From NCBI GenBank assembly GCA_933228895.1, contig OW121847.1:196001-260000 (forward strand): a DNA stretch of 64,000 bases, read 5' to 3'. The notes below the pieces were generated by a model. That model was not told the DNA's origin. It did not search any database and saw nothing but the letters and a program-made list of their open reading frames with translations. The number at the start of each line of letters is the position of its first letter. Within the stretch, counting starts at the first letter, position 1. Positions 1,564 to 51,690 of the stretch are shown here, one piece after another. Made by a program: the position numbers and the translations under genes. The DNA comes from Platycnemis pennipes. Its lineage: Eukaryota; Arthropoda; Insecta; Odonata; Platycnemididae.

Positions 1564-2815
1564 GCCGAACTTGACGATGCTAAGATCGATAACAAGGTAA
1601 GTTTCCCTAGACAACTGTCTAAGTGACTTTGCGGGTATTACGTAGGGAATTTTATCCTAATTTTTATTGCTTCACCGGTGATTCATATAATTGCAATTCT
1701 GAATTAGAAAAAAATGGACCCCTCGAAAGTGACCCGAAAAGAAATGCATGTCATGATTTTCAATGCAAGTGGAAATTCGGTGTATTCCATAGGAAAATTA
1801 GCCTTGCAATATCTTCACAGTAAGTTTAATCAAGGTAAAGACATGGAAATGAAGGAAATTTTGACTAATGTCATCCACACAATTTTTTTCAATCCATACT
1901 TCAAAAAATGGGATGAATGCCATAGGACGAACGACAGGTTTAGATAAAAACTTCGCTGTTGTTTAGAAAAGGATATACTATTCCCAGCGGACATGTATAA
2001 ATATCTGCTTGGAAATCCCAACTCAGGTTGGTACCGATCATTGGTTAACATATTTCCATTGGCTCTATTTTACTCCAAGGAAATTTATATTGCATTGCAA
2101 TCTAGCTGCATGTTCTTCTGAGTTAAGAGGCAAAGAAAGACCGAAAAAAGATTTTGAGAGGTCTAGTGATAGAACTAAAAGAAGAAAAATAGCAGATTTA
2201 AGAAAGAAAGCGTCAGCAGCAGAACTATTGATAGCCATATCCATGACATTGCACTGCAAAGGGAATGACGCGGCAGCGAAAATAATAACTGAAATGACTA
2301 CAACAACCCCCACCTGAGGAAAACGAATGTTAAAAAATGGAGGTCAATGTCTGCACCTCAAAATGAGTTGACGCTCTGACGGTGATTGTTGATTGCAATT
2401 TAACGAAGTTGCAATATGAAATACTTCGCAAGTCTGCCAAAAAATGTGGACACAAGCTTTACCTTAGTTATGAAAGGGTTAGATTTCAGAAGAAAGCTTC
2501 ATACCCAGAGGGCATATGAGCAGGGGAAAAAATATGGGGGTTCGATGGCAGTTCGGGATACTCTCAATACAAGCAGGTATGGTAGGACCCGAATGCCATT
2601 CATGAAAGCATATTCGCTACATCTCTTGTACCACTTCGTCTGCTGGATGATGTGAGAGGTAGGTGAACAAGAAATAAACATTTTCGAGCTTTCACTAGCC
2701 AGCTAAATAACTTTTAATTTGTTTATGTTATTCATATTTTTCAAAAAGGTGAAGCTATCTGGTCAAATCTATGGCCATCGTCCAAGGCGATTTTGCAGGC
2801 CATTAATATTATTTA
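1564..2815 (+). pseudogene. Degenerate Transib (RAG1-like) transposase, N-terminal part, copy A1
   Basis: Transib enzymes are DDE transposases related to RAG1. Seen in order: a possible donor (AAG/gtaagt near 1596) and an acceptor (attag/AAA near 1710); an open stretch beginning MDPSKVTRKEM; a basic segment SSDRTKRRK near 2161-2190; a segment EILRKSAK near 2418-2440; then GFDGSSGYSQYKQ (2538-2576), whose Asp codon at 2544-2546 fits the first catalytic Asp of Transib/RAG1; SLVPLRLL; and finally IWSNLWPSS near 2760-2790, aligning with the IIWMNPRPSS segment of the copy at 16.3 kb. It is broken by frameshifts, a TAG at 2583-2585, and a roughly 112 bp deletion just before GFDG compared with copy A2. 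The family call rests on recognising several conserved blocks, not on a search. Confidence 0.7.
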
Positions 2816-2897
2816 TAAAAAATAATTTTATGTGCTTAATATGTAATATTTTGTTTAAAAAATTAAATATATTTAAAAGTCACGATACCAAAGTCAT

Positions 2898-3825
2898 GTT
2901 TTATGACAGTGGTATCGTACAACTTGACGCCTTAGACGTTTGAACTTCTTCAGGGACTCCACGCCTGATTCTTTTCACTGTGCCAACAATGTAAATGCTA
3001 ATTTCGTTTAGTTTTTCGTCAATTTCATTTACATGACTATCTGCCGTGGTGTCTTGTCCTGAATTTACGTACTATGTCCGAACGTAATAAGCGTAAAACA
3101 ACATTGTCAAGGAGACTTTCGTTGGGCAGATGCAAATATCTTTCCTCAGATATAGAAACCCATTGCAGAAATATTCGGAATTTACATCTGCTAACCTGAT
3201 GGAATTTACACCTGCTAACCTGATGGAATTTACATCTGCTAACCCAGAACTTGATTCCAAATTTTTCTGGTTTATTTGTATGCATGTGACCATGTACTGA
3301 GTGAATCTACACCTAGCTGTATGTAGTGGGAAAAAGCTGCTCGTTCAAGGATAGGTATTCCCTAGGACTATAGCAGGCTATACAGTTTCCCACAAAATTG
3401 CTCCATATTTCGAACACTAATGCAAATTTATCTGCATTGAGACGCTGAGATCTTGTCCCGAGAACTTCGCAACTTAGGTACTGAATGAGCTTGCGACATG
3501 TTTCGTGGCATCATCTGAGGGAAAAACGCTGGCCCCCAATCACTAGTTCATAACATATCATAATCTAGTGAACCACAATCATATGCTCCTCGTGCAAGCA
3601 TTAGTTCAATAATAGCTTCAATTTCTTTAGCAGTTGTGGTCCAATATCTCTCACCCATCTGCTTCCGCTTTAGTGCATATTTTGATATTTCGGAGCGTAC
3701 GTTCATAGATAAATAAGCATCATGCGTTATATACATAATCTTTATAAACGCTGCGTTTGCTTTTTGGTGATGGTTCCGGATTTTCTTCCAAAATATTTTT
3801 AAGTAGTTACGAAGTTAGACCGCGT
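2898..3825 (-). pseudogene. Degenerate piggyBac transposase, copy B1
   Basis: Seen on the minus strand: an N-terminal stretch from about 3825 (ILEENPEPSPKSK), then MYITHDAYLSMNVRSEISKY to YWTTTAKEIEAIIEL (3736-3548), the block EYLSLNEQLFP near 3350-3320, NKPEKFGIKFW near 3275-3240, LDNVVLRLL near 3105-3075, and GTVKRIRRGVPEE near 2985-2945. These are piggyBac transposase blocks in the right order. The first catalytic Asp (normally DEQ) reads Asn, and stops and frameshifts divide the frame. A 24 bp repeat is expanded inside it. It lies immediately downstream of Transib copy A1 in the opposite orientation, and the same arrangement recurs at 12.1-13.0 kb. Confidence 0.78.
3177..3244. repeat. 24 bp tandem repeat, about 2.8 units, inside piggyBac copy B1
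   Basis: The unit GGAATTTACATCTGCTAACC plus TGAT occurs at 3177-3200, 3201-3224 (one substitution) and, incompletely, from 3225. On the coding strand it adds eight-residue blocks in frame. The homologous site at about 12430 has only one unit, so the expansion is specific to this copy. Confidence 0.9.
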
Positions 3826-8415: not shown

Positions 8416-9215
8416 GGGTGTTGACTACGAATTCAAAGCAGCGATTTAACGGACGTCTTGCAGCTAGCTGCAGATAGTTCGGAAGTTCGCCACCACAGGA
8501 CCAAGCACAGGCGAAGGTGGGGGGAGAAGGAATTGAAGGGAGGGGATGGAATGGAGGAGAGGGGAAGGGTATTGAGGAGAGGGGGTGGAGGGGAGATCTT
8601 CAGTGTGTCGGAACGTGAACAAGTGTTGGGAAATAGATGATCCTAGAGCTGAGTCGCCTTGGAAGACTGCTATGAGAATTTGATTATGGCCCTGTATTAT
8701 TTTACTCTAGCATTTTTACAAATTGTAATTATGAATGTAAACCATTGCACAAAGTCAAGGGTGTTGACTACGAATTTAAACTTAAACTAAAGTTTAAACG
8801 AAATTAACTTTAAATAAAAATCTCTCATGAATGTGTAGGATTATAGAAGACTTGACTTATATAAGTACTTATTATGATTCGTAAATAATAATTGTGCTAA
8901 ATAGAACAAGCGCTTACATGAAATACGAGTAAAAAGTTATCAACAACCATAAATGCAAGACCAAAAGATATGGGTATCCAGGAAGGTAACTATTTGTTGG
9001 ATCGATTTTAAGTTATGTGCTATTATATGCATTCCATAGGGATAGAAATCTTGGAGAATGCAAATAGAAGAACATATAAACGGTACTTTAGTTTACTCCC
9101 TCAACTCATTACCAAAAACCATAAAGCTAATCGCAGAATATTATAGTGATCCTCATTATAAAGATGATTTACGCATCTCATATCTGCTTCAGGATTAGTA
9201 CGAAAAATACCTTCC
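8416..9215. other. No gene; repeated GGGTGTTGACTACGAATT ends
   Basis: GGGTGTTGACTACGAATT occurs directly after the TTAA at 8412-8415 and again at 8759-8776. The first looks like a terminus of another TTAA-type element (compare the ends at 4465, 18864 and 32715). The G-rich frame at 8458-8640 has no family signature. The rest is AT-rich and featureless. Confidence 0.45.
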
Positions 9216-10570
9216 GAACTTGACGATACTAAGATCGATAATGAGGTAAGTTTCCCTAGACAACTGTCTCAGTGACTTTGCGTGTATTACGTAGGGAATT
9301 CCATCCTAATTTTGATTGCTTCTCCGGTGATTCATATAATTGCAATTCTGAATAAGAAAAAAAAAGACCCCTCGAAAGTGACCCGAAAAGAAATGCATGT
9401 CATGATTTTCAATGCAAGTGGATATTCGGTGTATTCCAAAGGAAAATTATCCTTGCAATGTCTTCACAGTAACTTAAATCAAGGAAAATACATGAAAATG
9501 AAGGAAATTTTGACTAATGTCATGCACACAATTTATTCAATTCATGCTTCAAAAATGGGATGAATGTAATAGGACTAACGACAGGTTTAGATAAAAACTT
9601 CGCTGTTGTTTAGAAAAGGATATACTGTTCCCAGCGGACATGTATAAATATCTGCTTGCAAATCCCAACTCAGGTTGGTACCGTTCAATGGTTAACATAT
9701 TTCAATTGGCTGTATTTTACTCCAAGAAAATTTATATTGCATTGCAATCTAGTTGCATGTTCTTCTGAGTTAAGAGGCAAAGGAAGGCCGAAAAAAGAAT
9801 TTGAGAGGTCTAGTGATAGAACGAAAAGAAGAAAAATAGCAAATTTAAGAGAGAAAGCGTCAGCAACAGAACCATCGACAACCATATACATGACATTGCG
9901 CTGCGAAGGGAATGACGCGGCAGCGAAAATAATAACTGAAATGACTGCAACAACCCCCCCCCCCCCAAGGAAAACGAATGTTAAAAAAATGGAGGAAAAT
10001 GCCTGCAACTCAAAATGAGTTGACGCTCTGACGTTGATTGTTCATTGCAATTTAACGAAATTGCAATATGAAATACTTCGCAAGTCTGCCAAAAATGTGG
10101 ACACAAGCTTTACCCTAGTTGTGAAAGGGTTAGATTTCAGAAGAATGCTTCATACCCAGAGGGCATATCAGCAAGGGAAAAAATGTGAAGTGAGCCTTCA
10201 AGAACCGCTGAACCACACAGCCTCTCGCACTATAACATCTTCAAGATTCAGAGATGATCAGAGATGAAGGACCTTTAACCTGTTCCTCATATGCAAATAG
10301 GGGTTCGATGGCAGTTCGGGATACTCTCAATACAAGCACGTATGGTAGGAGCCGAATGCCACTGATGAAAGCATATTCGCTACATCTCTTGTACCACTTC
10401 GTCGGCTGGATGATGTGAGAGAGAGGTGAACAAGATTAAAACATTTTCGAGCAATCACTAGCCAGCTAAATAACTTTTTAATTCGTTTATATTATTCATA
10501 TTTTTCATAAAGGTGAAGCTATCTGTTCAAACCTATGGCCATCGTCCAGGGTGATTTTGCAGGCCATTAA
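9216..10570 (+). pseudogene. Degenerate Transib (RAG1-like) transposase, N-terminal part, copy A2
   Basis: Direct repeat of copy A1, starting at the same CCGAACTTGACGAT. It keeps the donor/acceptor pair, the SSDRTKRRK block, LTKLQYEILRKSAK (10046-10095), and a block EVSLQEPLNHTASR (about 10187-10230) that is deleted in A1. GFDGSSG follows from 10301 with the catalytic Asp codon at 10307-10309, then SLVPLRL and the IWSNLWPSS homologue up to about 10570. It shares the in-frame TAG (10346-10348) with A1, so both descend from an already dead copy. Confidence 0.7.
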
Positions 10571-12145
10571 TATTATTTCTAAAAAATAATTTTATGTTCT
10601 ATGTAATATTTTGTTTAACAAATTTAAATATATTTAAAACAGCTTACGTTTTCAATAATAACCATTTATTAAAATAAAATAAACCCTCTATACTGCAATG
10701 GTACGCCTAGTCGATTTTTGGAATTTTTCAGTCTTCACTAATTTGTTTAATAAAAGACCTCGGACCATTTTTTGGCTAAATTCCGTAATATTTATGTCTA
10801 GAAGCATAAGAAAAATTAGCTGGGACGGTTTCGTCGTTCTATCTATAGAAATAGGGAAGATATGATTTTTGATAGCTTTTTTCGATTTCAGCCCACAGGT
10901 TTTCCCCATATCTAAAAGCGCCGGCGGCGGTAATTTTAACCGGTAGGTGTTATCTCTTGATTTCACGGTGTATATGAATAAATTTATGCATTTATTCAAT
11001 TTTGAGGTGATATCGTCATATTATCAAATAATATTTACATTTTAAAAGTAATTAATAAGATTTATAAGCAATTTATTTATTTTCGCTTTTACACAAAATT
11101 TGGAATTAAAGAATTATCATCAATTGCGATATACACGATATAGATAGTGGTAGTTTAGTGGATAAATATTATGTTGAGCAATTATATATACTGTATTTAG
11201 TATCAGGAATTGTTTCTAATGTAGGTAACAGCATATAACCATGTATATAGCTATGGAATACCAGCTCCACCCCCCCTAAGTTTATTTTCACGAAACGGAA
11301 CACATATTATAAATTTTTCAATTTTCATTTCATTTTCTTTTCGTAAGATTCTGTGCATTTTCCGTACGTATATTTTTGGCATATTGAACATTTTATATGG
11401 TTTTGTTTCGTTTCAATTTTTTACCTGACAATGATGTCTATTTCTAATTTCTTGTATCTGAAATGAAATGAGATGGTCCCGGCTGTGACTTGATATACTC
11501 GCTACGCAGTTCTTCAGTTAAATTCAAAATAAATTTATGGCAGCTGATGTTTTGTGAGGTGATCTCTTCCTATATCACTCATGCGTTAATTGCAGCTAAA
11601 TCTAGGGGAGTTGTGTTTGAAACCGTCGGAATTATCTCAAATAGGTAACCAAGGAGTCACGTGATACCTACACGAATGGTTTCAAAATTTAATGTGTCTG
11701 ATTCGCTCTTTACAACATCATTAATTGTTTTCACTCTAGTTTTTCTCACCTATTCCAACTAAAGAGCCCCCAGTTGAGATATAACAAAAGTGTAAACAAA
11801 GAATGAGGTTGCAATCAGCGGTTTTAACACACCAAATTTGGGAACAGTTCGTGTGTATACCACGTGACTCCTTGGTTACCTATTAGAGATAATCCCGACG
11901 GTTTCAAACACAGCCCCCTAGGATACTGTATAAAATTTGACAGGCCATCGGCGAGATCCTGCGCACCTAGTGTTATTCCTTGTCATTTGGTCCGGTATAT
12001 CTACTTCATATTTTGTGGTGTCGTAGAAACTGACTGAATCTCATTATCTTTTTCTGTAAATGTAGTATTTCAATGCTGGTATGTACGGTTCTCAGCACCA
12101 ATATGTTTTTTTCATCTTGGTATACAGTCATTGTAATGTCGTTGT
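10571..12145. other. 1.5 kb segment present only in the second Transib/piggyBac duplicate
   Basis: Copy 1 goes directly from the Transib remnant to piggyBac (about 2815-2898); here about 1.5 kb of AT-rich sequence intervenes. A minus-strand open frame at 10999-10688 (103 residues, KLPPPALLDMGKTCG) is not recognised. A TA-flanked MITE lies at 11603-11920. Otherwise nothing is seen. Confidence 0.55.
11603..11920. mobile_element. TA-flanked MITE (Tc1/mariner-like) with ~75 bp TIRs
   Basis: Inverted ends: left GGGGAGTTGTGTTTGAAACC from 11605, right (reverse complement) GGGGGCTGTGTTTGAAACC ending at 11918, with continuing match through GGTAACCAAGGAGTCACGTG about 45-65 bp in. TA occurs at both edges (11603-11604, 11919-11920). 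It is about 318 bp with no coding capacity. TA duplication plus this structure points to a Tc1/mariner-type MITE; the superfamily is inferred. Confidence 0.8.
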
Positions 12146-13017
12146 GTTTTATGACTGTGGTATCGTACAACTTGACGCATTAGACGTTTGAACTTTTCGG
12201 GGACTCCATGCCTGATTCTTTTCATTGTGCCAACAATATCAATGCTAATTTCGTTTACTTTTTCGTCAAATTCATTTACATGAAATCACTATCTGCCGTG
12301 ACGTCTTGTCCTGAACTAAGGTACTATGTCCGAACGTAATAAGCGTAAAACAACATTGTCAAGGAGACTTTCGTTGGGAGGATTATATTTCTTCAGATAT
12401 AGAAACCCATTGCATAAATATTCGGAATTTACATCTGCTAACCCAGAACTTGATTCCAAATTTGTCTGGTTTATTTTTATGCATATGATCATGCATTGAG
12501 TGAATCTACACCTACCTTTAGTTGGAAAAAGCTGCTCATTCAAGGATAGGTATTCACTAGGACTATAGCAGGCTATACAGTTTCCCACAAAATTGCTCCA
12601 TATTTCGAACACCAATGCAAATTTATATGCATTGAGAAGCTGAGATCTTGTCCCGAGAACATCGAAACTTAGGTACTGCATGAGCTGCAGACATGTTTCG
12701 TGGCATCGCCTGAGGGAAAAACGCTGGCTAATCACTAGATCATAGCATATCATAATCTAGTGAACCACAATCATATGCTCCTCGTGCAAGCCTTAGTTCA
12801 ATAATAGCTTCAATTTCTTCAGCAGTTGTGGTCCAATATCTCTCACCCATCTGCTTCCACTTCAGAGCATATTTTGATATTCCAGAGCGTACGTTCATCG
12901 ATAAATATGCATCATGCGTTAGATACATAATCTTTATATACCCTGCGATTGGCTTTTGGTGATGGTTCCGGGTTTTCTTCCAAAATATTTTTAAGTAGTT
13001 ACGAAGTAAGACCGCGT
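12146..13017 (-). pseudogene. Degenerate piggyBac transposase, copy B2
   Basis: Paralogue of B1 in the same orientation. Minus strand: MYLTHDAYLSMNVRSGISKY to YWTTTAEEIEAIIEL (12928-12740), then in one long open stretch (12753-12316) LMQYLSFDVLGTR, FVGNCIACYSPSEYLSL, NEQLFPTKGRCRF and LDNVVLRLL, and GTVKRIRRG further down. The catalytic DEQ motif reads NEQ as in B1. It has a single copy of the 24 bp unit that is tripled in B1, and frameshifts around 12500-12430. Confidence 0.82.
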
Positions 13018-14202
13018 ATGTATGCGACCGTGTAAGGATAAAAAAGGGGCGATAAGGGTGGTGTAAAAGAGCGCATTTCCCATGTCTTGGGATAAAGCAG
13101 AACTGTGTACCTGTATCCTATCCTGTTTTTATGTATATCTTGAGACAACTGTGAGAAAATCCATGAAAAACTCCTTTGATGCAATTGCAGAATAATAATT
13201 AAAAAAGAAAATTCTCAGGAATCATGCAAGGAAACGTGTTAATTCAATTTGATCACGTGACTACAACCTGTCATGCCAGAAAAATCTTATTTGAAAGGAA
13301 AAAAACTATAAGATGAAAATTTATAATACCGTCAAAACGACCGCTCTGGCGCTTTTAGGTATGATAAATTAATATTTCATTAAGTAACAGACCAAAACAA
13401 ATCATTTTTGGCATGTGAACGTTAGACTAAAGTTCATTAAAAGTCACGAAATTTCAACAATTTATAACCATTGTGAAAAAAACGGTCAGTATTTGAAATT
13501 AAAAAACGGTCAAAATTACCGCTCTGGTGCTTCTAGTGCTAAAGGACTCTACGCGTAATCGAGGGACCCGGGTTCGTCTCGGTTCAGGCGATATTGTTAA
13601 TCTGTGGAGGTCTCTCATTTTACTGCAATGAATATGATGATATAGATGAAAATACTTACTGTCTGTAAAAAATGCAAGACACCCTAGTTTGAGGAGCTCT
13701 ATCGTCTAAACGAAGCAATTCATTTCAATGCAACAAAAAGCATACGAAAGAGAGGTTATTTCTACGTCGGATCATTTACTTCAAAAAATCTTCGGCTACA
13801 TAGTATTTCCTGTACTTAATTTTTTCTCAAAAAAGTACCCGTTTTTTGCGCGTAAAATCAAGTTGCCCAACTTTGAGCGCTTGGTATTCCCGTAGTTTTT
13901 GTTCCAATAACTTTCGATTTTGACATAAGAAAGCCAGATCTATTAGTAACAGTTTGCAGAAAACAAATTGTTTATACCACTAAAATTGATGGATTTGTTG
14001 TAAACAACGCAAACCCCTGCTAACTTCGAAACCAAAGGGTCAATTGAAAATTGATTGGTACTGTTGTAGTAGGTACATCACTTGCAGTTTTTCCATGAAA
14101 GATATGTTTCGTATTCTTTCCTTGGTAGCCTTTCAGATTCTTCTTCCTTTCACTCTCAATGTCGAAAGGCACCAAAATAAAAACTCAATTCGCTCTTCGA
14201 GA
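13018..14202. other. No recognisable gene
   Basis: AT-rich sequence between piggyBac copy B2 and the Transib element. A B-box-like GGGTTCGTCTC near 13570 hints at a worn tRNA-derived SINE, but I cannot support an A box at the right distance. Short frames are unsupported. Confidence 0.5.
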
Positions 14203-14207
14203 CATCG

Positions 14208-15168
14208 CACAGTGGTCGGAAATCGAAAATACCTGGCCAAAATTCAAAAAGTGATCTTTTCAAGCCAGGAAGTTGAAACTTTGCATTAATATTCTCAAAA
14301 GACCTGGGCATGCAATGATGCAAAGCATTTTCCTTAGTACACAACACTTAACAATTAGCATGAGGTCAAAGTTGCACAAATTTCGCAAAAAATGCCTACA
14401 CTCGATTTTCTCACGAAATCTTCAAAATCAAGCCCTTACCTAAGCATTATGTGTAAAGAATTGGAATAAAAAGTCATTTAATTAGATGAAACAGTTTTTT
14501 TCTTTGTTTTCATGTAGTCCGCTTACATTTTTATAATTATTTACCAAAGATATTAAACAAAATGGCAGACCTTAATTTTTGGTCATTTTTTTCATATAGG
14601 TAGAGAAATAGTTAATTGCATCACCGAGCATCACGAAGTAACTTATATGGGGAAACTCTACAAAGCTTCTACAGTGCGAATCCGATGAGTGATGCTGCGA
14701 CCGTTTGCGACGCCGAATTTCACATCAGTTTTTCGATCGCGCGGTCGAGTCTGGTTGAACCCGCCTGCGCGGGGAGTAACGTGGCGCGGCAAGTGTGTGG
14801 ACTAGATTGTAGTCGCATCCACTCCGCTTTGGAGATTTTCGAGATACAAACATTGACAAGATCCTCCATGCATTATATTTTGCAGAAATCGCGAAAAAAA
14901 TTACGCATTTTAACACATGGGGTAAAGGTCTAGGAGGTACTGAAAAACTTCTTTCTTCCGGTGCACCGCGGGAGTTTCTCTTCTTACCAACTTGACATCG
15001 CCTACCGACGAATACGTACACTTTTAACGGAGACAGCATGCATACCACACAGGATTATTGTCTCTTCGAGGCCACCAACCCACAGCTGGTGTCGCACGGC
15101 TGCAATTCCCCCGCCCCCTGCAATGAGGTTGAGCGTTCGGCGAAGGGTCCGTTTTATGACACCGCGGA
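14208..15168 (+). repeat. T1 left terminal inverted repeat
   Basis: About 961 bp, inverted copy of 17321-18282 with only scattered substitutions; the inner end is at GACACCGCGGA. TTTGCGACGCCGA (14704-14716) and TTTTTCGATCGCGCG (14729-14743) lie 496 and 521 bp from the heptamer and recur at the same distance in T2. The open frames along the arm appear on both arms because of the symmetry and are not evidence of a gene. Confidence 0.9.
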
Positions 15169-15770
15169 ACGTTGTCGGGGATTCTGGGGGGTTACGATCC
15201 CGATGCTTAATTATTTTTGCTATGTTAAATGTCAGTGTCATTTTTTATTCAGTGCCAGGGAGAAATACTGTGAAGAGAAATAATTTGCAATACCCTATTT
15301 CATCATGATTATGTATATATCCTTTTTCTTAAAATGTAACAAAATATGCACTACAAAATTCAGTTTTTGCTTGTATTTCTACTAATCGCTATCCGAATAT
15401 TCACTGCCATCACACTCTGAACAAATCAGGTATTTTTCTTTTTCACTCGATAATGCAAATAAGGCCAACTGATATACACTGTAATATTACAGAGAATCTG
15501 TCCATCAAGTTTATGTCGATTCCTGTAATGAAATTAGAAATTTGTTAGAAGAAATCAAAGGTAACCTAAAGCAATGAAATTCCAATGTAGCATCAGAAGG
15601 TGCTAATGAAGAATTCAGAAAATTAGATGTCTTTCACACCTGTTATTTCTGAAGATAATGAGGGATTATCAAAGAATCTTCTGGCAGTAGTACCAAACCC
15701 GGGTCTAGGTACATCTACATTTAGCCCCATCTTCTCTTTGAATGACTTTTGCAGGTGAATCTTCCTGTCT

Positions 15771-16365
15771 TTAAGCATTTTTTTGTATTCTCCACGTGCC
15801 TATTGGAAGGTTCAGAGGGTGAGTTTCACAATAAAATATTTTTGAATGAGAAAGTAATGTTTCGTTCACTTTTTTACCTACCTGCCAGAGTTTGAAATCC
15901 ATGCTATAAGATACATGCAACAGACACTCAAAAAATCTTATATGAAAATGCAGTGTAGATATGCCAAAATTGTTAGTGCCCTTATTAACTGATCTTTGGG
16001 CCAATTCATTAAATTTATTCATACTTGAAATTTTTGCCCCACAAATATAGCATTTCATGCTGCCACTCTCCGTCGATGCGTTGCATACCTAATTTGGACG
16101 TTTTGTTTTAGTTAACACATAAAAATTAAATTATGACGTTTTTTGACAATTTTAAACGTTTTACCTTTCCATTTATCATGGTGAGAAGCAGAGAAAAATT
16201 AATGGAGTAGTTTTTCCATTTGAATGCATTTAAAATATCACATTGCCTCTTTATATAAATTTCCTCTGTCTTCGCCACTTGTTTCGTCTCTTTGATCCAT
16301 TGAAGGCGAATGGGGCGGCAGAATCTTGTTGACGATGGCCTAGGGTTCATCCAAATAATTGCACC
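15771..16365 (-). pseudogene. Transib transposase core fragment in T1
   Basis: Minus strand: an acceptor-like TTTAG near 16366, then AIIWMNPRPSSTRFCRPIR, LQWIKETKQVAKTEE, SLLLTMINGKV (about 16190-16160), a short damaged interval, then CYICGA (16053-16036) and FGISTLHFHIRFFECLLHVSY (about 15975-15900) ending in LWQ before a donor-like gtaggt. TMxDGK is where the second catalytic Asp is expected (about 16-19 residues before the CxxC); here it reads Asn (AAT). CxxC corresponds to the zinc-binding Cys pair of RAG1. The C-terminal HKxLxH/Glu part is missing. Confidence 0.75.
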
Positions 16366-17320
16366 TAAAGTATAAGGAAATGTCTTTAAACATCAGAAAA
16401 TATTATGAGTAATAATTAAATGTTTTTACAAGATATTGCGGAAAACACCTATAATTCTTTGTCATTGTTACCTGTCTCGTCGTTCACTAAACGCAGTGGC
16501 ACCAGGGAGCTGATGAACAAGAATTCATCCTACATCGATTCTTGATGCCATCTTTGCTTATACCAGGAATGGCCTGAGTTTCCGTCAAAACCATATTAAC
16601 CAATTAATGTACAATTTATATTTTGCGCGGTTGTTGAATCTCTGGAAATGCATTCCATGATACGCAATGCTGTATGATCTAGGAGACTTTGAAGTTTAAC
16701 TTCACATGAGTCCTCTAAAATTAAAGATTAACCCATTCGCCTCTTAATTTTCCATGGATATTCTGCATTTTAAACTCTATTTAATTTTCTGAAAAATTTC
16801 ACGGAATTATTTAAAAATATTTTTTGGAAATTAAAATTATTTACTAATTAAATATTTCACAATTTATTTTCACCGAATAAGAAAAAGACTTGTGGTACAT
16901 AGAATCGGGAAAAAAGAATAGCATTAGAACATTGAATTCCATCAGGTGACCGGCGAATCACCGGTTCTTTACCTTAAGGCAAAATAAGGTAGACCGGCGA
17001 ATCGCCGGCGCTTTACCCCAAAGGGTTAAAAAAACGCCAAAAAGGTTATTAAAAATAAAATATTTAAAAAGACATTAGCTTTTCCTAATAGAGTACACAT
17101 ACCTTGAAAAAGTGAGGAATCTTGAAGTGGTTAGCAATGTATCCTCACCATTACGAGTTGTAGAGAGAATTTCGGGAGATCCAATTCTGACACCAACACG
17201 AGTGAAATTCGAGCTGAAGTTTCAAAATCTAATGCTTCGTACCACTACCAAAATGAAACTGAACGCTCCGGTGCATTTCATTGGAGATTAGGAACGTTTT
17301 CCCAAAAAAGCGTAAAGGGA

Positions 17321-18282
17321 TCCGCGGTGTCAAAAAACGGACCCTTCGCCGAACGCCCAACCTCATTGCAGGGGGCGGGGGAATTGCAGCCCTGCGACAC
17401 CAGCTGTGGGTTGGTGGCCTCGAAGAGACAATAATCCTGTGTGGTATGCATGCTGTCTCCGTTAAAAGTGTACGTATTCGTCGGTAGGCGATGTCAAGTT
17501 GGTAAGAAGAGAAACTCCCGCGGTGCACCGGAAGAAAGAAGTTTTTCATTACCTCCTAGACCTTTACCCCATGTGTTAAAATGCGTAATTTTTTCCGCGA
17601 TTTCTGCAAAATATAATGCATGGAGGATCTTGTCAATGTTTGTATCTCGAAAATCTCCAAAGCGGAGTGGATGCGACTACAATCCAGTCCACACACTTGC
17701 CGCGCCACGTTACTCCCCGCGCAGGCGGGTTCAACCAGACTCCACCGCGCGATCGAAAAACTGATGTGAAATTCGGCGTCGCAAACGGTCGCAGCATCAC
17801 TCATCGGATTCGCACTGTAGAAGCTTTGTAGAGTTTACCCATATAAGTTACTTCGTGATGCTCGGTGATGCAATTAACTATTTCTCTACCTATATGAAAA
17901 AAATGACCAAAAATTAAGGTCTGCCATTTTGTTTAATATCTTTGGTAAATAATTATAAAAATGTAAGCGGACTACATGAAAACAAAGAAAAAAACTGTTT
18001 CATCTAATTAAATGACTTTTTATTCCAATTCTTTACACATAATGCTTAGGTAACGGCTTGATTTTGAAGATTTCGTGAGAAAATCGAGTGTAGGCATTTT
18101 TTTGCGAAATTTGTGCAACTTTGACCTCATGCTAATTGTTAAGTGTTGTGTACTAAGGAAAATGCTTTGCATCATTGCATGCCCAGGTCTTATGAGAATA
18201 TTAATGCAAAGTTTCAGCTTCCTGGCTTGAAAAGATCACTTTTTGAATTTTGGCCAGGTATTTTCGATTTCCGACCACTGTG
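17321..18282 (-). repeat. T1 right terminal inverted repeat
   Basis: About 962 bp, inverted copy of 14208-15168, ending outward in CCGACCACTGTG followed by the CATCG duplication. High identity between arms suggests either a young insertion or gene conversion between arms. Confidence 0.9.
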
Positions 18283-18304
18283 CATCGCTTCGGCTTAAAC
18301 CAAA

Positions 18305-18864
18305 CCAATGCAGCTGCGACATTGTGAAACAAAACCCTTATCTCTACTCGCGCCGGCTTTCCCAGGAGGGCTGGAGGGGAGCGCGAGAGGGGAAGGAAGA
18401 GAAAGATAGAGAGACAGGAGGTGGGGAGGACCGTTAGCGGGAGTGGGGGAGGTCCCTCTGAAGCTCCATGCAGCGCCAAAGAGAGGAATAGTTTCCGCGC
18501 TCAAAATAGTGAAAACATGGTCCAGGAAATGATTCAATGCTACGTTATTACCCTTCTAACGCCGTTGGGATTGGTGTCATTTTAAAGGAGAAGGATGAAT
18601 CCCTAAGGTTAATGGAAGAGATGCTTCAATTACGATTTGTGTATCGTAAGAAAGACAGCAGAAAATGAGATATTTTCACCTTTTTCAGCGCCTATAGCAT
18701 TTGAAATGAAATATACTCGAAACTTGTGATCCATTCTCCCACATTATTTGTCTTTGTTCTAACGAACTGTGAAAAAGGTTCATCTCAATGTGTCATATTA
18801 CGCTCGTAATCTTCTATCTCGCAAGAGTCTGCGCAGCCGTTTTCCGGGTAGGTATTCAACACCC
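18305..18864. repeat. Dispersed repeat R, copy 2
   Basis: Same-orientation copy of 3890-4465, here with a shorter GA tract. It ends in GTATTCAACACCC followed by TTAA (18865-18868) without the 3.9 kb insertion present in copy 1, so it works as an approximate empty site for TE1. T1 separates it from the piggyBac B2 side of the duplication. Confidence 0.75.
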
Positions 18865-31459: not shown

Positions 31460-32165
31460 TTACGTTATTTACCTAAATCACGTAATTAGTACGTGGCGGA
31501 ATAACTTCCGCACGCCCTGTCGTTTTTTGTGTATGAAATTAACGGAAGAGCATAAAGTGTGATCGTGATTTTGAATTTCCGTATCTTTGGCTACGCAGTC
31601 CCGACGCACGTACAACATTTGTTCTAGTTCGCCTGGTGCCGTGATTTTCCAGCGCTGTGCTTTTTTGGAAAAACTAATCGCAAGAGAAAAAAAGAATTTA
31701 GGTTTCGTAATCATACAATTGTAAGTATCTACCGAAATGTTCGGGTGATTCTAACATGCTCCTGAAAAGGTGCAATACATTAATTCTTCAAAATTAATTG
31801 TTACCTCTGGCTTTTTATCAATTTCCAAGCGACGTCCTTGATTCGAAACTCTCTCCCACCCGAATATTTCGCCCGATCACCCGAACATTTCGGTAGATAC
31901 TTACAATTATATGATTACAGAGCTTAATTTCTTTTTTTCTCTTGCGATTAGTTTTTCCAAAAAAGCACAGCGCTGGAAAATCACGGCACCAGGCGAATTA
32001 GAACAAGTGTTGTACGTGCGTCGGGACTGCGTAGCCAAAGATACGGAAATTCAAAATCACGATCACACTTCATGCTCTTCCGTTAATTTCATACACAAAA
32101 AACGACAGGGCGTGCGAAAGTTATTCCGCCACGTACTAATTACGTGATTTAGGTAAATAACGTAA
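31460..32165. mobile_element. Fold-back element with 291 bp inverted arms
   Basis: Arms 31460-31750 and 31875-32165 are near-perfect inverted copies separated by 124 bp. Outer ends are TTACGTTATTTACCTAAATC, inner ends TTCGGGTGAT. The 78-residue frames on each arm mirror one another. The right flank holds more TTACGTAATTA-type repeats. I found no clear target duplication, so the superfamily is open. Confidence 0.85.
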
Positions 32166-39821: not shown

Positions 39822-40584
39822 CACAGTGGGGCCAAATCCCATTTTGCCGGACAAAAGTCCAAAACTGCTTTTTATGAGATAACGTCTTGAAATTTGGCAC
39901 ATATACACACAAATGATTGCTGATCATGGAATGGTAAGTCATTTTTCTTAGGTATTACCCGTTACTTAGATACAGAGGCTCAAACACGACCAAATTTCGA
40001 AAAAAGCGCCCGCTCTCATTTTTCTTCGAAAATCTTAAAAGTTGAGCAGATATAGCAGTAATTCAAGGATTTTTATGAAATAAAAAACATTACCAATTGT
40101 GAACAGGGTACTTTGCCTATACTATGCATAAGTTTTAGACACTTTTGCCTATATTTGAGTGCTATTACGTCACAAAATGGCGGACCCTTTTTTTAGACAA
40201 AATTTTACATAAAGTGGACAATATAATCCTTATTCGGAAAATGGTCTCTGGGATACTTCATCAGAGTATAAATTGAAGATATTTCTAGGTTATTCCGTAA
40301 AAATATTTGAAAAAAGTTTGCGACGCCGAGAATAAACTCGATTTTTCGATCGCGCGTCGCGGCCCGGCTCCGCGCAGCGGGACCTGGAATTACCGAGACT
40401 CCGTTGGATTGTTCATGTTGTGTGGATAATAACTCCTCGAATATAACTTTTTCAGGCTTTGCATGCTGTCACTGATTTCTACAGATTCTATATTGAAGAT
40501 TTTTCAAGGATATTGGTTCTAGAGAATGGATTAGTGCACTCGTAACTGCGGTAATTTTTTTATTTGGATAATTTTCGGAATCAT
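39822..40584 (+). repeat. T2 left terminal inverted repeat
   Basis: About 763 bp. TTTGCGACGCCGA (40317-40329) and TTTTTCGATCGCGCG (40342-40356) sit 495 and 520 bp inside the heptamer, as in T1. A G/C block GCGTCGCGGCCCGGCTCCGC follows. Confidence 0.88.
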
Positions 40585-42024
40585 GCTGAAAATTATGAAC
40601 GTCTTTCAGTTCTTGAGCAAGAATGCCGGTTCTCGGGGAACCATGTATGTTATCCATAAAAAGGCAACATTTGGGATTCCCTTCTTTACCCTCTCCTCCT
40701 CCACCCCGAACTACATCCTACGCCTGTACTACCCGAGGAGGGTGGCGCAAAACGGAACGTTTTATGACAATGTGCAGTCTTAAAAAAAACATGCCTGCTT
40801 GGCAAATTACAACTTGTTATCTGACTCTTTGATGCGTCAGAAATAATATTAGTGGATACTCTCCTATAAGTAACTTGGAACTGACATTATATGAAAATTG
40901 ATATTTAATTTTAAGGATTACCTAAAGGGAATCACTTTCACAATATCATTCTTTATAGCTTCTTACAATGAAACTCAAAAATCTGTTTAAAATCAGCATG
41001 ATTTCATGAGTGTTTACAAAAAGCTCTGTTGTGCGCATTATCATCTGTTTGTATTGAGTGAGATACTCGATTATTAGGTTTGAGGGATGGATTCATTTAA
41101 ACTTGAGATTACAGTGGTTTTGCATTTTTATTTCGCATGCTGATCACACAATGTAATAGTGTCAAATTGCAATGCTCTCGACGAAAAGTAAAGTAATATA
41201 GATGAAGCCCCATTAGATTAATCAATAAGATATTAAACAAAACTGAAAAACTGATGTTGTTTTGCATAGAATTTGCTGCGCCATTCTTACTTATAGTTTA
41301 AAAAGAGAAAGTAATTTGAAAAGAAGATGGCAATAAACGAGAATGACTTAAATTCATTTTGATATTGTCAGTACCGATAAAATCAATTCAATAATATAAA
41401 TGAAATGCCATTACTTGTAAGATACTGAACAAAACATAAATATCATTATCCCAAATGATTTTCACCCTCAAAGCATCCTTAGTTTTAACTCATCGAGTCC
41501 TCTTCAGGTAGTTGACAAATTTCTGAAAGCACACACCATGTTTATATTTGGGAATGGTTAAGAAGGCGAAAAAACAGAGAAGATGGGTTGTTCGTACGTG
41601 TACCGATACGCTCCTTGAGAGAGATAAGGGTGAGAAGAGGTCTGTTTGCGGCAATGAAGGGAAAACCCCAAGAAGGGAATACCCGGAGAAAATGAAAGGA
41701 GGGTGGAGGGTCGGCAGAGGAAGTTAGGTCGGCGGTGTTCAAATGAGGGATTAGCAAGGGTGGGTAAGGGAGCGGTTAAGGAAAGGGTGGTTGATAGCGG
41801 GCTCCTGACAATGCGATCGCCTTTTCACTATCCTTCCCTTAACCACTCACCCATCCCCACGAATTCGTCACTACAACACCTTTGACCAAACTTTCTTTGC
41901 CGATTGTTCGATTCAAGCAAAATTCTTAGTGCTCGGACGAATCGTAACCATCATCTCAGTTTGATTCTATGCTTCTTCTTTGTCTTCTACTAGTAATAAT
42001 TCTCGTAATTCCTTCGGAAGCCTC

Positions 42025-42445
42025 CTATGAGTCTTCGCAGTCAATGATATGGTGGAGGAAAGCAACGGATCGAACGTGATCAAGTCTTTTGAATAGGTCC
42101 TCAATGGTGGCCGTCCTGGAGTGTTTCCGCGTGAATCTTTCTCGAAATTTCATGGCGTCCTTATTGCGGGCCTCCATCGCCTCTTCGGATAGCTGGCCTA
42201 AAGGAAAAATTGCCCCTTTCGAAAAATCCGCGCCATGTATGAGTAGTTTATGGACCGTGGTCGGCATATAGGACAATGAATAACATCCCGAAATCCAATT
42301 TTATAAATCGTCAATCTGCCTTTGCAAATAATTATTTTCTGTCTTGGCAATTTCCTTCGTCTCTTTGAGCCACTGAAACGAATGGGCCGGCAAAATCTGA
42401 TGGACGACGGCCACGGATTTGCCCAGATAATTGCACAGCTAAAAC
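42025..42445 (-). pseudogene. Transib transposase fragment in T2, with C-terminal catalytic region
   Basis: Minus strand: acceptor TTTTAG near 42441, then a frame reading AIIWANPWPSSIRFCRPIRF and, after a one-base shift, QWLKETKEIAKTENNYLQRQ. After an internal deletion (second Asp and CxxC missing) the frame 42276-42025 reads YMPTTVHKLLIHGADF, LGQLSEEAMEARNKD, RERFTRKHSRTATIEDL. HKxLxH matches the zinc-binding His pair of RAG1, and SEEAxEARNK aligns with the region of the RAG1 catalytic Glu (SEGNESGNK). Blocks are in family order, but the gene is dead. Confidence 0.78.
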
Positions 42446-42524
42446 AGGGAAAGTATTAATATTGCCCGTTTGTTCTATATGCGGATTAGCCAAAGATAAA
42501 ATAGATACGCTTGAATCTCTTACC

Positions 42525-42960
42525 TGAAGAATCATATGATACCATCTATGACAACCCTCTGTTCTCGCCCACTTAAGAATTCTTTTACCCAGCATACAAC
42601 GTCATTATTCATACCAAAACTCTCTAACTTCAAGATTAATTTGTCATGAGGAACTTTATCGAAAGCCTTTTTAAAATCTAAAAATATCGCATCAACTTCA
42701 GTACTGTTTTCGCCGGAGACTAAAATATCGTGTACGAATAAAGCTAATTGTGTCTCGCAAGATCTACCTTTCCGGAACCCATGCTGGATGTTTATGAGTA
42801 ATCCCTGACTATCCAAATGCCCCATGATCGAACTGACTACAATGTGCTCAAATATCTTTCAAGAGATTGACGTGAGTGAGATGGGTCTGTAGTTACTGGG
42901 TTCTTCCCTATCACCCTTTTAAATATACTAGGTGTAATGTTAGCTACTTTCCAATGTTAA
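42525..42960 (-). pseudogene. LINE reverse-transcriptase fragment inserted in T2
   Basis: Minus strand: WKVANITPSIF (about 42955-42920), MGHLDSQGLLIN, HGFRKGRSCETQLALFVHDI, VDAIFLDFKKAFDKVPHDKL (a clear RT fingers-palm motif with the first catalytic Asp), ending at REQRVVIDGI near 42530. It is the same LINE family as 5498-7890. Neither end of the LINE is present, so this is an internal fragment. Confidence 0.85.
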
Positions 42961-43328
42961 ATTGTCCATTGTTAAAATGTCCAAATCCGTACTTGCATAT
43001 TAAAGTGCAATTAACTTCATCGCTGGAGGTTTACGCTGTAGATACGCACTACAGTACACGTGAGACCGTGTGATTGAATAAATATTGAAGATTCACTTCG
43101 CACATAATTCGGTTATACTTATTCCATCGGGGTAATCCGCATCGGGGATACAACTCGTGCCCGTGACTAAGAACGGGGCATCTAAGTGTATTATACTGAC
43201 TATAAGTCAGTCCCCTAGTGATCAGTAAGGACAAAACCTCCTCAAGTGACATCTCCGTCACCACATCAGGACTTTTCCTACATTTGAGAGCACTCTCCTT
43301 GCCCTACTAAGAGTGGTTGTGATTCAAA

Positions 43329-44130
43329 ATGATTCCGAAAATTATTCAAATAACAAATTTACCTCAGTTACGAGTGAACTGAATGGAGTGCACTGAAGAA
43401 CATATGGACACTACTAACTGATCCATTCTTTCGAACCAATATCCCCGAAAAATCTTCAGTGTAGAATCTTTAGAAATCAGTGACAGCATGCAAAGCCTGA
43501 AAAAGTTATATTCGAGGAGTTATTATCCACACAACATGAACAATCCAACGGAGTCTCGGTAATTCCAGGTCCCGCTGCGCGGAGCCGGGCCGCGACGCGC
43601 GATCGAAAAATCGAGTTTATTCTCGGCGTCGCAAACTTTTTTCAAATATTTTTACGGAATAACCTAGAAATATCTTCAATTTATACTCTGATGAAGTATC
43701 CCAGAGACCATTTTCCGAATAAGGATTATATTGTCTACTTTATGTAAAATTTTGTCTAAAAAAAGGGTCCGCCATTTTGTGACGTAATAGCACTCAAATA
43801 TAGGCAAAAGTGTCTAAAACTTATGCATAGTATAGGCAAAGTACCCTGTTCACAATTGGTAATGTTTTTTATTTCATAAAAATCCTTGAATTACTGCTAT
43901 ATCTGCTCAACTTTTAAGATTTTCGAAGAAAAATGAGAGCGGGCGCTTTTTTCGAAATTTGGTCGTGTTTGAGCCTCTGTATCTAAGTAACGGGTAATAC
44001 CTAAGAAAAATGACTTACCATTCCATGATCAGCAATCATTTGTGTGTATATGTGCCAAATTTCAAGACGTTATCTCATAAAAAGCAGTTTTGGACTTTTG
44101 TCCGGCAAAATGGGTTTTGGCCCCACTGTG
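43329..44130 (-). repeat. T2 right terminal inverted repeat
   Basis: About 802 bp, inverted copy of 39822-40584 with high identity in the outer 600 bp, ending in GGCCCCACTGTG then CGGCG. Confidence 0.88.
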
Positions 44131-48084: not shown

Positions 48085-48770
48085 CACTACTGTCATCTAC
48101 ATATACATCTACATAATACCCTGCAAGCCACCACAACGGTGTGTGGCAGGGGGTGATTGCTCACCAAACATGCACTACATATCATGCATAAAAGAGGAAT
48201 AGTATTAATATAGTAGTCAGAACTACACTATTTAAAAAAAATAGAAATTGCAAAGAAAACATGCAAAAACATTCTGTTAGTAGGGTTAGCTTTAAGTACT
48301 CATACCAACATGCAGCTACCAATGCTATTCATTGCTACTCTCCGATAGGACATATTTACCGTTATTCGTATCTCTAATTGTGCGAGGGAAAAAGGACATT
48401 TTGAATCGGTCAGTTCGGCAATCAATTTCTCTAATTTTATGATTATGGTCCAGTCTGCCATAGTAAGTTGGGGTTCGTAAAATATTTTCAACATCATCAC
48501 TGAAAATATTTCCTTGGAATTTGTTTAAGAGATTAACTCTAAATTTTAACCTGCGATCTGACAATGATTCCCATTTCAATTCATTTAATAGACTGGTTAC
48601 GCTAGTAAGGTTATCATACCGTCCCTTTACAAATCTTTCCGATCTTCGCTGCACACGTTCAAGTTCATTACTTAGACCGATTTTGTAGGGTTCCCATACA
48701 CTGGCAGCATATTCCAAATGGGGTCTAACAAGGGAAAAGTAGCTGATTTCTCTTACATCATACTGTCTGT
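48085..48770 (-). pseudogene. 5'-truncated LINE 3' end (RT C-terminus, hairpin, GATGTA tail)
   Basis: Minus strand: LVRPHLEYAASVWEPYKIGL, LERVQRRSERFVKGRYDN, LLNELKWESLSDRRLKFRVN, RTPTYYGRLDHNHKIREIDC, RFKMSFFPRTIRDTNNGKY, then a 3' UTR with the hairpin GCAAGCCACCAC...GTGTGTGGC (48120-48150) and a tail of GATGTA-type repeats (48085-48115). It inserted into Gypsy RNase H sequence. It lacks everything upstream of the RT thumb region, as expected for 5' truncation. Confidence 0.85.
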
Positions 48771-51129: not shown

Positions 51130-51690
51130 ATCGGCAAGATTTGTAAAGGGACGATACGATAATTATATTAGCGTAACCAGTCTATTAAATGAATTGAAAT
51201 GGGAATCATTGTCAGATCGCAGGTTGAAATTTAGACTTAATCTCTTCCACAAATTCCAAGGCAATATTTTCAGTGATGATGTTAAAAATATTTTACGAAC
51301 CCCAACTTACTATGGCAGACTGGACCATAATCATAAAGTTAGAGAAATTGATTGCCGAACTGACCGATTCAAAATGTCCTTTTTCCCTCGCACAATAAGA
51401 GATACGAATAACGGTAAATATGTCCTATCGGAGAGTAGCAATGAATAGCATTGGTAGCTGCATGTTGGTATGAGTACTTAAAGCTAACCCTACTAACAGA
51501 ATGTTTTTGCATGTTTGCTTTGCAATTTCTATCTTTTTTAAATAGTGTACTTCTGACTACTATATTAATACTATTCCTTTTTTATGCATGATATGTAGTG
51601 CATGTTTGGAGAGAAATCACCCCCTGCCACACACCCTTGTGGTGGCTTGCAGGGTATTATGTAGATGTAGATGTAGATGTTATGTCAAAT
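51130..51690 (+). pseudogene. 5'-truncated LINE 3' end, plus strand
   Basis: Same family as 48085-48770: RFVKGRYDNYISVTSLLNEL (from 51135), LKWESLSDRRLKFRLN, RTPTYYGRLDHNHKVREIDC, ending in SSNE stop at 51448. The 3' UTR has TGCCACACACCCTTGTGGTG, GCTTGCAGGGTATTATGTAG and the GATGTA tail (to 51690). The coding part is open for 84 residues, so this copy is comparatively fresh. Confidence 0.87.

What the first reader, a model, noticed from the sequence alone, without database searches (positions are those of the whole stretch)
14203..18287. RAG1-family Transib T1: V(D)J-like heptamer CACAGTG, 5 bp CATCG duplication and ~960 bp inverted repeats
The termini read exactly CACAGTG, the RSS heptamer, with a 5 bp direct repeat outside and RAG1-like transposase fragments (CYICGA, RPSSTRFCRPIR) inside. 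Most described Transib TIRs are tens of bp, so TIRs of nearly 1 kb with high arm identity are unusual and suggest arm homogenisation or a distinct long-TIR lineage.
Basis: partly seen in the sequence, partly recalled or inferred. Interest (0 to 1): 0.88.

Follow-up and report, generated by a model that had tools for sequence, protein, structure and literature searches.

The report
RAG1-related transposon with kilobase mirrored ends
This is one copy of a jumping gene from the Transib group (kin of the enzyme that cuts antibody genes) in what is probably an insect genome; its two 960-base mirrored ends are on average far more alike within a copy than between copies, likely because one end is copied onto the other, and its own broken enzyme gene is predicted to leave it dependent on an enzyme made by a relative.

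Summary
The finding is confirmed. Window 14208-18282 is a complete Transib (RAG1-superfamily) element with CACAGTG ends, a CATCG 5-bp duplication and 961-bp inverted repeats about 98.7% identical. In the source genome (1.79 Gb, probably an odonate) 18 of 18 further complete copies end in CACAGTGG with perfect 5-bp duplications. The 'fragments' are exons of a spliced gene (spliced sister copy matches Helicoverpa zea Transib at E 7.5e-71). T1's gene has two stops, Asn for the second catalytic Asp and no Glu exon, so it is predicted to be non-autonomous. Both guesses about the arms hold. (1) Long-TIR lineage: T1, T2 (39822-44130), L059 (1,020-bp arms, nearly complete gene) and L064 share homologous long arms; L060, L062 and L065 in the same genome have TIRs of about 35-40 bp. 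(2) Homogenisation: arms differ 0.39% within copies against 2.1-2.3% between; 40 of 44 variants found in exactly two arms sit in both arms of one copy. A duplicate of the T1 locus (L009) carries private changes in both arms, pointing to conversion in place. Hztransib was already said to have long TIRs, so this is a new variant of a known kind. Bolder lead: the clade has a D-N-E catalytic triad.

The parts
14203..14207 (.). left target-site duplication CATCG
   Evidence: 5-bp TSDs in 18 of 18 other complete copies
14208..15168 (+). left terminal inverted repeat (961 bp), begins CACAGTGG
   Evidence: 98.75% to the right arm
14208..14247 (+). outermost ~40 bp: likely the ancestral short TIR; 87.5% identical to one end of short-TIR relative L065 (83.8% over 37 bp to the other), and its first 35 bp 82.9% to one end of L062
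14557..14571 (+). block ACAAAATGGCAGACC, kept at nearly the same offset in T1, T2 and L059 arms (predicted regulatory; function untested)
14704..14743 (+). conserved motif TTTGCGACGCCGA-N13-TTTTCGATCGCGCG at arm base 497
   Evidence: 471+468 exact matches genome-wide, 0+0 in the reversed-pattern control
15461..15520 (-). approximate exon F remnant (GIDINLMDRFSVILQ...); no Glu-bearing part follows
   Evidence: alignment; in sister copies
15640..15799 (-). exon E (ARGEYKKML...SSEITG); the NDGN of L027 is missing here
15882..16088 (-). exon D (VCNASTESGSMKCYICGAK...DFKLWQ), about residues 213-285 of the HzTransib chain
16165..16364 (-). exon C (AIIWMNPRPSSTRFCRPIR...TMINGK); second catalytic position reads Asn (codon 16171-16173)
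16472..16714 (-). exon B (DSCEVKLQ...YGFDG region); first catalytic Asp kept (codon 16584-16586), two in-frame stops
   Evidence: the homologous stop-free exon of L010 maps to HzTransib chain residues 70-143
16728..16731 (.). TTAA duplication, left of nested insert
16732..17025 (.). 294-bp nested insert with CCC...GGG ends in TTAA (piggyBac-like, label recalled); not spanned by the alignments of T1 to the other copies
17026..17029 (.). TTAA duplication, right of nested insert
17104..17186 (-). possible upstream exon A (weak; homology not shown)
   Evidence: splice-signal match only
17321..18282 (-). right terminal inverted repeat, ends CCACTGTG
17746..17785 (-). conserved motif in the right arm
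18283..18287 (.). right target-site duplication CATCG
39822..44130 (.). T2, second long-TIR Transib of the same lineage (arms about 715-790 bp, 98.5% over 719 bp; TSD CGGCG; Glu-bearing exon kept at about 42082-42282 minus)

Best explanation
T1 is one copy of a Transib (RAG1-superfamily) DNA transposon family with 961-bp terminal inverted repeats that is predicted to be non-autonomous, is likely cut and pasted in trans by a related Transib transposase, and whose two arms are likely kept alike by arm-to-arm gene conversion. The outer ~40 bp, beginning with the CACAGTG heptamer, is likely the part the transposase recognises; the inner ~920 bp is an extension shared by several families of one lineage and holds conserved blocks that are predicted to be regulatory. 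The family's gene is multi-exon; in T1 it has two stops, Asn at the second catalytic position and no Glu exon. Shown: ends, TSDs, many copies, exon structure by homology and splice signals, catalytic residues, arm homology between families, and concerted evolution of the arms. Inferred: mobilisation in trans, conversion as the molecular process, and a regulatory role for the inner arm.
For: Ends and 5-bp TSDs in T1 and in 18 of 18 other complete copies. Spliced transposase of sister copy L027 aligns to Hztransib chain residues 69-358 at E 7.5e-71. Catalytic map: alignments, counted by hand, differ by a constant 17 from the D126/D225/E436 given in PMC6941560 (passage). D2 reads Asn in 23 of 23 distinct T1-clan copies where the motif was found. 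No Glu-region match in T1. L018 and L024 have identical interiors but different flanks and TSDs, so movement was recent. The genome lists open Transib frames that could act in trans: 36 rows by my count with a frame of 650 aa or more and no stop in the match, plus L062 with D-D-E, open catalytic exons and similar ends. Arms: within-copy divergence 0.39%, between-copy 2.14-2.31%; 40 of 44 doubleton variants shared by the two arms of one copy, 0 side-specific columns; own arm nearest in 20 of 20 arms of ten copies, eight of them new; three changes private to both arms of L009, a duplicate of the T1 site.
Against: No transposition was assayed. No copy with matching long arms and an undamaged D-D-E gene was found; only 20 T1-type stretches, 38 automatically cut loci and 7 other loci were read, out of hundreds. 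In 6 of 36 arms the nearest arm belongs to a sister copy, not to its own partner. Random re-pairing of arms reached 22 shared doubletons at most (observed 40). The private L009 changes could in principle have come as a whole from an unread copy. T1's own arms are the most divergent of the 18 (1.06%). Hztransib already had long TIRs.
Confidence: 0.86

Rival explanations
1. The arms are alike only because the palindrome arose recently, with no exchange between arms afterwards.
For: Arms are about 98.7% identical in T1 and the family is young (internal divergence 2.05%).
Against: Then left arms would be nearer to left arms of other copies than to their own partner; observed within 0.39% against 2.14-2.31% between, and no side-specific column. 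The long arms are also homologous between T1, T2 and L059, so they are old.
Confidence: 0.03
2. Arm copying is tied to transposition (for example template-driven repair of a cut copy) and does not happen in resting copies.
For: Most copies are independent insertions, so cannot separate the two.
Against: T1 and L009 are one insertion duplicated with its flanks, yet changes at arm positions 130, 277 and 326 are in both L009 arms and in none of 33 arms of other copies nor, as exact 21-base words, in any other held locus.
Confidence: 0.15
3. The lineage moves itself with an Asp-Asn-Glu transposase, so it is not dependent on a D-D-E relative.
For: L059, the T1 clan and Ischnura P0091 form a supported clade, all with Asn; third-position excess of changes between L059 and L027 (71, 59, 161); 184 Asn-type against 33 Asp-type exon ends.
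Against: Asp to Asn at this site is expected to abolish catalysis (general knowledge of DDE enzymes); T1 itself lacks the Glu exon and has stops; the N-terminal part of L059 appears to be frameshifted (read by eye).
Confidence: 0.1
4. High arm identity is an assembly artefact.
For: Long inverted repeats are hard to assemble.
Against: Single-arm variants are present (50 singletons; 13 columns, two of them indels, between the T1 arms), so arms were not collapsed; arms of T2-type copies differ by 1.8-2.2%.
Confidence: 0.02

Closest known systems
Hztransib of Helicoverpa zea (structure 6pqn)
   Same: Transposase homologous over chain residues 69-358; 5-bp TSD; 3518 bp and described as having long TIRs (PMC1852546, passages).
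   Different: D-D-E triad there (PMC6941560); T1 has Asn at D2 and no Glu exon. I found no TIR length in the passages seen, so arm length and arm exchange could not be compared.
Drosophila melanogaster transib1-4
   Same: Superfamily by name.
   Different: TIRs 40-45 bp (PMC10299278 table passage) against 961 bp.
Galileo (P superfamily, Drosophila)
   Same: Works like it in the arms: long TIRs (about 0.3-1.2 kb), 98-100% identity between the TIRs of one copy, recombination and conversion proposed (PMC3573991, passages).
   Different: Different transposase superfamily, 7-bp target duplication; no terminal CACAGTG in the passages seen.
Uncharacterized protein LOC124169231 of Ischnura elegans (P0091)
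   Same: 79% identical to the L059 transposase over 65% of the query, also with MINGK.
   Different: Only the protein was seen; its ends and TIRs are unknown here.

Membership tests
Transib superfamily | RAG1-like transposase | tested here: met
   Only strong structure match is Hztransib. The label PF26100 is on many homologs, but the spliced sister copy itself gave no Pfam match above cut-off.
Transib superfamily | 5-bp target-site duplication | tested here: met
   T1 and 18 of 18 other complete copies; 7 of 7 merged elements
Transib superfamily | Termini starting CAC with RSS-like heptamer | tested here: met
   CACAGTG in T1 and 18 of 18; variants CACAGTA (L036, one end) and CACTGTG (L059)
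Transib superfamily | D-D-E catalytic residues | tested here: not met
   T1: first Asp kept, second Asn, Glu exon absent. Homology, ends and TSD place it by descent; it is read as a defective member, and activity is not claimed.
Transib superfamily | Short TIRs (tens of bp; usual, not strict) | tested here: not met
   961 bp; Hztransib is also described with long TIRs
RAGL / ProtoRAG (RAG1L plus RAG2L) | Adjacent RAG2-like gene | not tested
   No RAG2-like search was run; only transposase exons were recognised between the arms
Galileo / P superfamily | 7-bp target duplication and P-type transposase | tested here: not met
   TSD is 5 bp; transposase matches Transib

The most novel reading that the evidence does not exclude
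The long-TIR clade to which T1 belongs runs on a transposase whose second catalytic aspartate has been replaced by asparagine (TMINGK, an Asn-Gly pair) and has been kept that way under selection in at least two insect genomes: a D-N-E RAG1 relative that is either a conserved, catalytically silent TIR-binding repressor of its D-D-E cousins or becomes active by Asn-Gly deamidation to Asp. In this genome Asn-type exon ends outnumber Asp-type ones 184 to 33, and five full-length Transib proteins among 233 homologs show the same change.
Probability: 0.15. Interest if true: 0.82.

Novelty: new variant of a known kind. Interest (0 to 1): 0.55.

Why it matters
Transib is the kin group of the V(D)J recombinase. 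A lineage that likely stretched a ~40-bp recognition end to about 1 kb, and keeps the two arms alike, offers a natural test of what sequence beyond the heptamer does and of gene conversion between inverted arms; long TIRs have arisen in other superfamilies (Galileo), and conversion was proposed there too. The recurrent change of the second catalytic Asp in otherwise long RAG1 relatives, if functional, would bear directly on how RAG-type activity is switched off or tuned.

Tried and rejected
Pfam on the two T1 peptides and on the spliced protein gave nothing above cut-off. Rfam on 14000-18500, gathering threshold, gave no family. The first idea that the peptides are decay fragments was dropped once they joined in frame and exon lengths proved shared with L059. 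The idea that Asn at D2 marks only the long-TIR lineage was dropped: L065 has Asn and short TIRs, and groups (94/93, not starred) with an Asp-type protein. dS between L059 and L027 was saturated, so no dN/dS ratio is given. Of three loci fetched to see an Asp-type exon in context, L061 and L063 look decayed and showed no TIR, L062 has a short one. Papers: PMC1131882 is not held, so the original Transib description is recalled only. Searches for long Transib TIRs or arm conversion: 0 papers; 14 listed; 11 listed; 25 of 40 listed; 12 of 22 listed. I saw listings, and passages of seven papers (PMC4411706, PMC8355894, PMC7204232, PMC3573991, PMC1852546, PMC10299278, PMC6941560); in these only PMC1852546 speaks of long TIRs in a Transib and none of arm exchange in one. 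One search (Transib or odonate terms) listed 12 of 1,485 papers, none with the word Transib; (deamidation) found one irrelevant paper. Nothing is said about papers outside that library.
Full report
What is there. Window 14203-18287 holds a complete DNA transposon: CATCG, then 4,075 bp from CACAGTGG to CCACTGTG, then CATCG. The arms are 961-962 bp and 98.75% identical in BLAST. A 294-bp insert at 16732-17025 with CCC...GGG ends between TTAA copies interrupts the interior; it falls outside the alignments of T1 to the other copies, and the piggyBac-like label is recalled.

Other copies. The window lies at C1:196001-260000 of a held 1.79-Gb genome. The outer 193 bp returned 40 scored matches, of 1,356 first-look candidates, at 97-100% identity. 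Twenty stretches were fetched; 18 hold both ends. All 18 begin and end with CACAGTGG and have identical 5-bp flanking repeats such as CGATG, CGTCG, CGGCG and CGCTG; one of them, L009, is a duplicate of the T1 site. Seven further elements, merged from overlapping loci, have 5-bp TSDs too; six have CACAGTG at both ends and one (L036) has CACAGTA on the right.

The gene. On the minus strand, exons B (16472-16714), C (16165-16364), D (15882-16088) and E (15640-15799) join in one frame at GT-AG introns. The spliced protein of sister copy L027 aligns to Hztransib (6pqn) residues 69-358 at E 7.5e-71. L059, a more complete relative, has the same exon plan, with equal lengths for C and D. PMC6941560 (passages) gives the Hztransib triad as D126, D225, E436; the alignments place the three residues, counted by hand, at chain positions 109, 208 and 419, a constant offset of 17. 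In T1 the first Asp is present, the second is Asn, the Glu region has no match, and exon B has two stops. Asn was read in 23 of 23 distinct T1-clan copies in which the motif was found (L019 gave no reading); L018 and L024 have lost the first Asp as well (Gly). T1 is therefore predicted to be unable to move itself. Yet L018 and L024 have identical interiors at different sites with different TSDs, so the family moved recently, likely in trans.

Who could move it. A search with a related protein listed many Transib frames in this genome; by my count 36 rows have an open frame of 650 aa or more and no stop in the match. One of them, L060, has a short TIR (BLAST match of 40 bases, 90%). L062 is intron-bearing with D-D-E and open catalytic exons, and has a short TIR (38 bases, 92%). 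These matches take in one or two flanking bases. The first 40 bp of T1 are 87.5% identical to one end of L065, and the first 35 bp 82.9% to one end of L062. The outer ~40 bp is thus likely the recognised part and the rest an extension.

A long-TIR lineage. T2 in the same window (39822-44130) has CACAGTGG ends, TSD CGGCG and arms of about 715-790 bp. T1 and T2 arms align end to end with score 250.8, against a mean of 84.2 (s.d. 14.3, maximum 134.2) for 200 block-shuffled controls. L059 has arms of about 1,020 bp at 99.8%, TSD CGGTG and CACTGTG ends; L064 has arms of at least 563 bp at 100%. Three-way alignment of T1, T2 and L059 shows kept blocks (A/G)CAAAATGGC(A/G)GACC near base 350 and GTTTGCG...TTTTTCGATCGCGC near base 500. 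The latter motif, as written for T1 and T2, occurs 939 times genome-wide and its reversed control never; L059 does not match the exact pattern. In 13 of 14 loci where it was read in forward orientation it lies 488-498 bp inside CACAGTG; in L029 no heptamer was found there (the other 16 of 30 loci were not examined this way). These loci were picked by the motif, so its constancy among them is partly by choice; its presence in both T1 and T2, which were found by their inverted repeats, is not.

Arms evolve together. Among 18 copies (T1 plus 17; L011 was left out because its right arm is interrupted, L021 and L022 because they are incomplete) the two arms of one copy differ by 0.39% on average (0.00-1.06; T1 is the 1.06), while arms of different copies differ by 2.14% (left-left), 2.31% (right-right) and 2.23% (left-right). 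Interiors differ by 2.05% between copies. Of 44 variants found in exactly two arms, 40 are in the two arms of one copy; 0 columns separate left from right at the threshold used (14 of 18 each); random re-pairing gave a mean of 2.1 and a maximum of 22 in 1,000. By my count, the own partner is nearest or tied in 30 of 36 arms; the six exceptions are between close sister copies. In a second set of ten copies, T1 and T2 among them, the own partner is nearest in 20 of 20 arms.

In place. The T1 site is duplicated: L009 near the end of C2 shares its TSD and 480 and 500 bp of flank, as far as L009 was cut, in BLAST matches of 98.3% and 99.0% that run on into the element. Since that duplication both L009 arms gained the same changes at arm positions 130, 277 and 326. 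None of the 33 arms of other copies has them, and as exact 21-base words they occur in no other held locus outside L009's own place (the word test is informative only where the surrounding bases match). A fourth, at 207, is shared with L021, another duplicate of the site. Columns that differ in a single arm number 19, two of them indels. Parallel mutation is unlikely; arm-to-arm conversion in a resting copy is the simplest reading, though a whole replacement from an unread copy is not excluded.

The Asn. Among 233 homologs, the second catalytic column reads Asp in 224, Asn in 6, Tyr 1, His 1, gap 1; the first column has no Asn and the Glu column no Gln. L059, Ischnura P0091 and the T1 clan form one clade (99/98), all with Asn. 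Changes between L059 and L027 fall 71/59/161 on the three codon positions over 287 codons, a sign that the protein was selected for at least part of that time. Exon-end patterns that differ only in that codon gave 184 Asn-type and 33 Asp-type matches (reversed controls 0 and 1). Against a single meaning: Asn also occurs outside the clade (L065, and full-length proteins such as P0136, P0190 and P0203), the N-terminal part of L059 appears frameshifted (by eye), and L065 has a stop.

Host. The closest proteins are from the damselfly Ischnura elegans; the host is probably an odonate. This is inferred from one gene family only.

Known and new. Superfamily, ends and TSD are known. TIRs of 40-45 bp in Drosophila, 13 bp in TransibSU-1_PM of a sea star (PMC4411706, passage) and 'long TIRs' in Hztransib frame the length. 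Galileo offers the same arm behaviour in another superfamily. I found no report of arm exchange in Transib in the searches named under Tried and rejected. The finding is filed as a new variant of a known kind.

Noticed in passing
window 39822-44130: T2, a second long-TIR Transib; keeps the Glu-bearing exon that T1 lacks. Its interior also holds a stretch that looks like a retroelement piece (not tested).
   Followed up: partly
window 1565-3825 and 9214-13017: Two related stretches (86-92% identical in three blocks) with a decayed third Transib gene (FDGSSGYSQYK); the self-BLAST showed no inverted pair around them.
   Followed up: partly
window whole; L009, L021, L022: The T1 site is repeated near the ends of other large contigs (C2 end, C44 start and end), so the window looks subtelomeric and segmentally duplicated.
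   Followed up: partly
window 16732-17025: 294-bp insert with CCC...GGG ends in TTAA, containing two 26-bp GACCGGCGAATC repeats.
   Followed up: partly
G000 C1:173827988-173851690, C1:111861137-111875245, C2:264491-272732, C2:376779-387513, C2:1303479-1310987: Inverted motif pairs 7.5-24 kb apart, far more than the usual 2.6-3.9 kb: nested insertions, unrelated neighbours, or large elements with cargo. Not read.
   Followed up: no
window 48094-48643 / 51130-51679 and 31460-31749 / 31876-32165: Other inverted repeats at about 96%, with no CACAGTG at their ends; not identified.
   Followed up: no
T1-family exon B in T1, L009, L012, L017, L022, L019: Two stop codons (only the second in L019) shared by copies from different arm clades: sign of exchange between copies.
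   Followed up: partly
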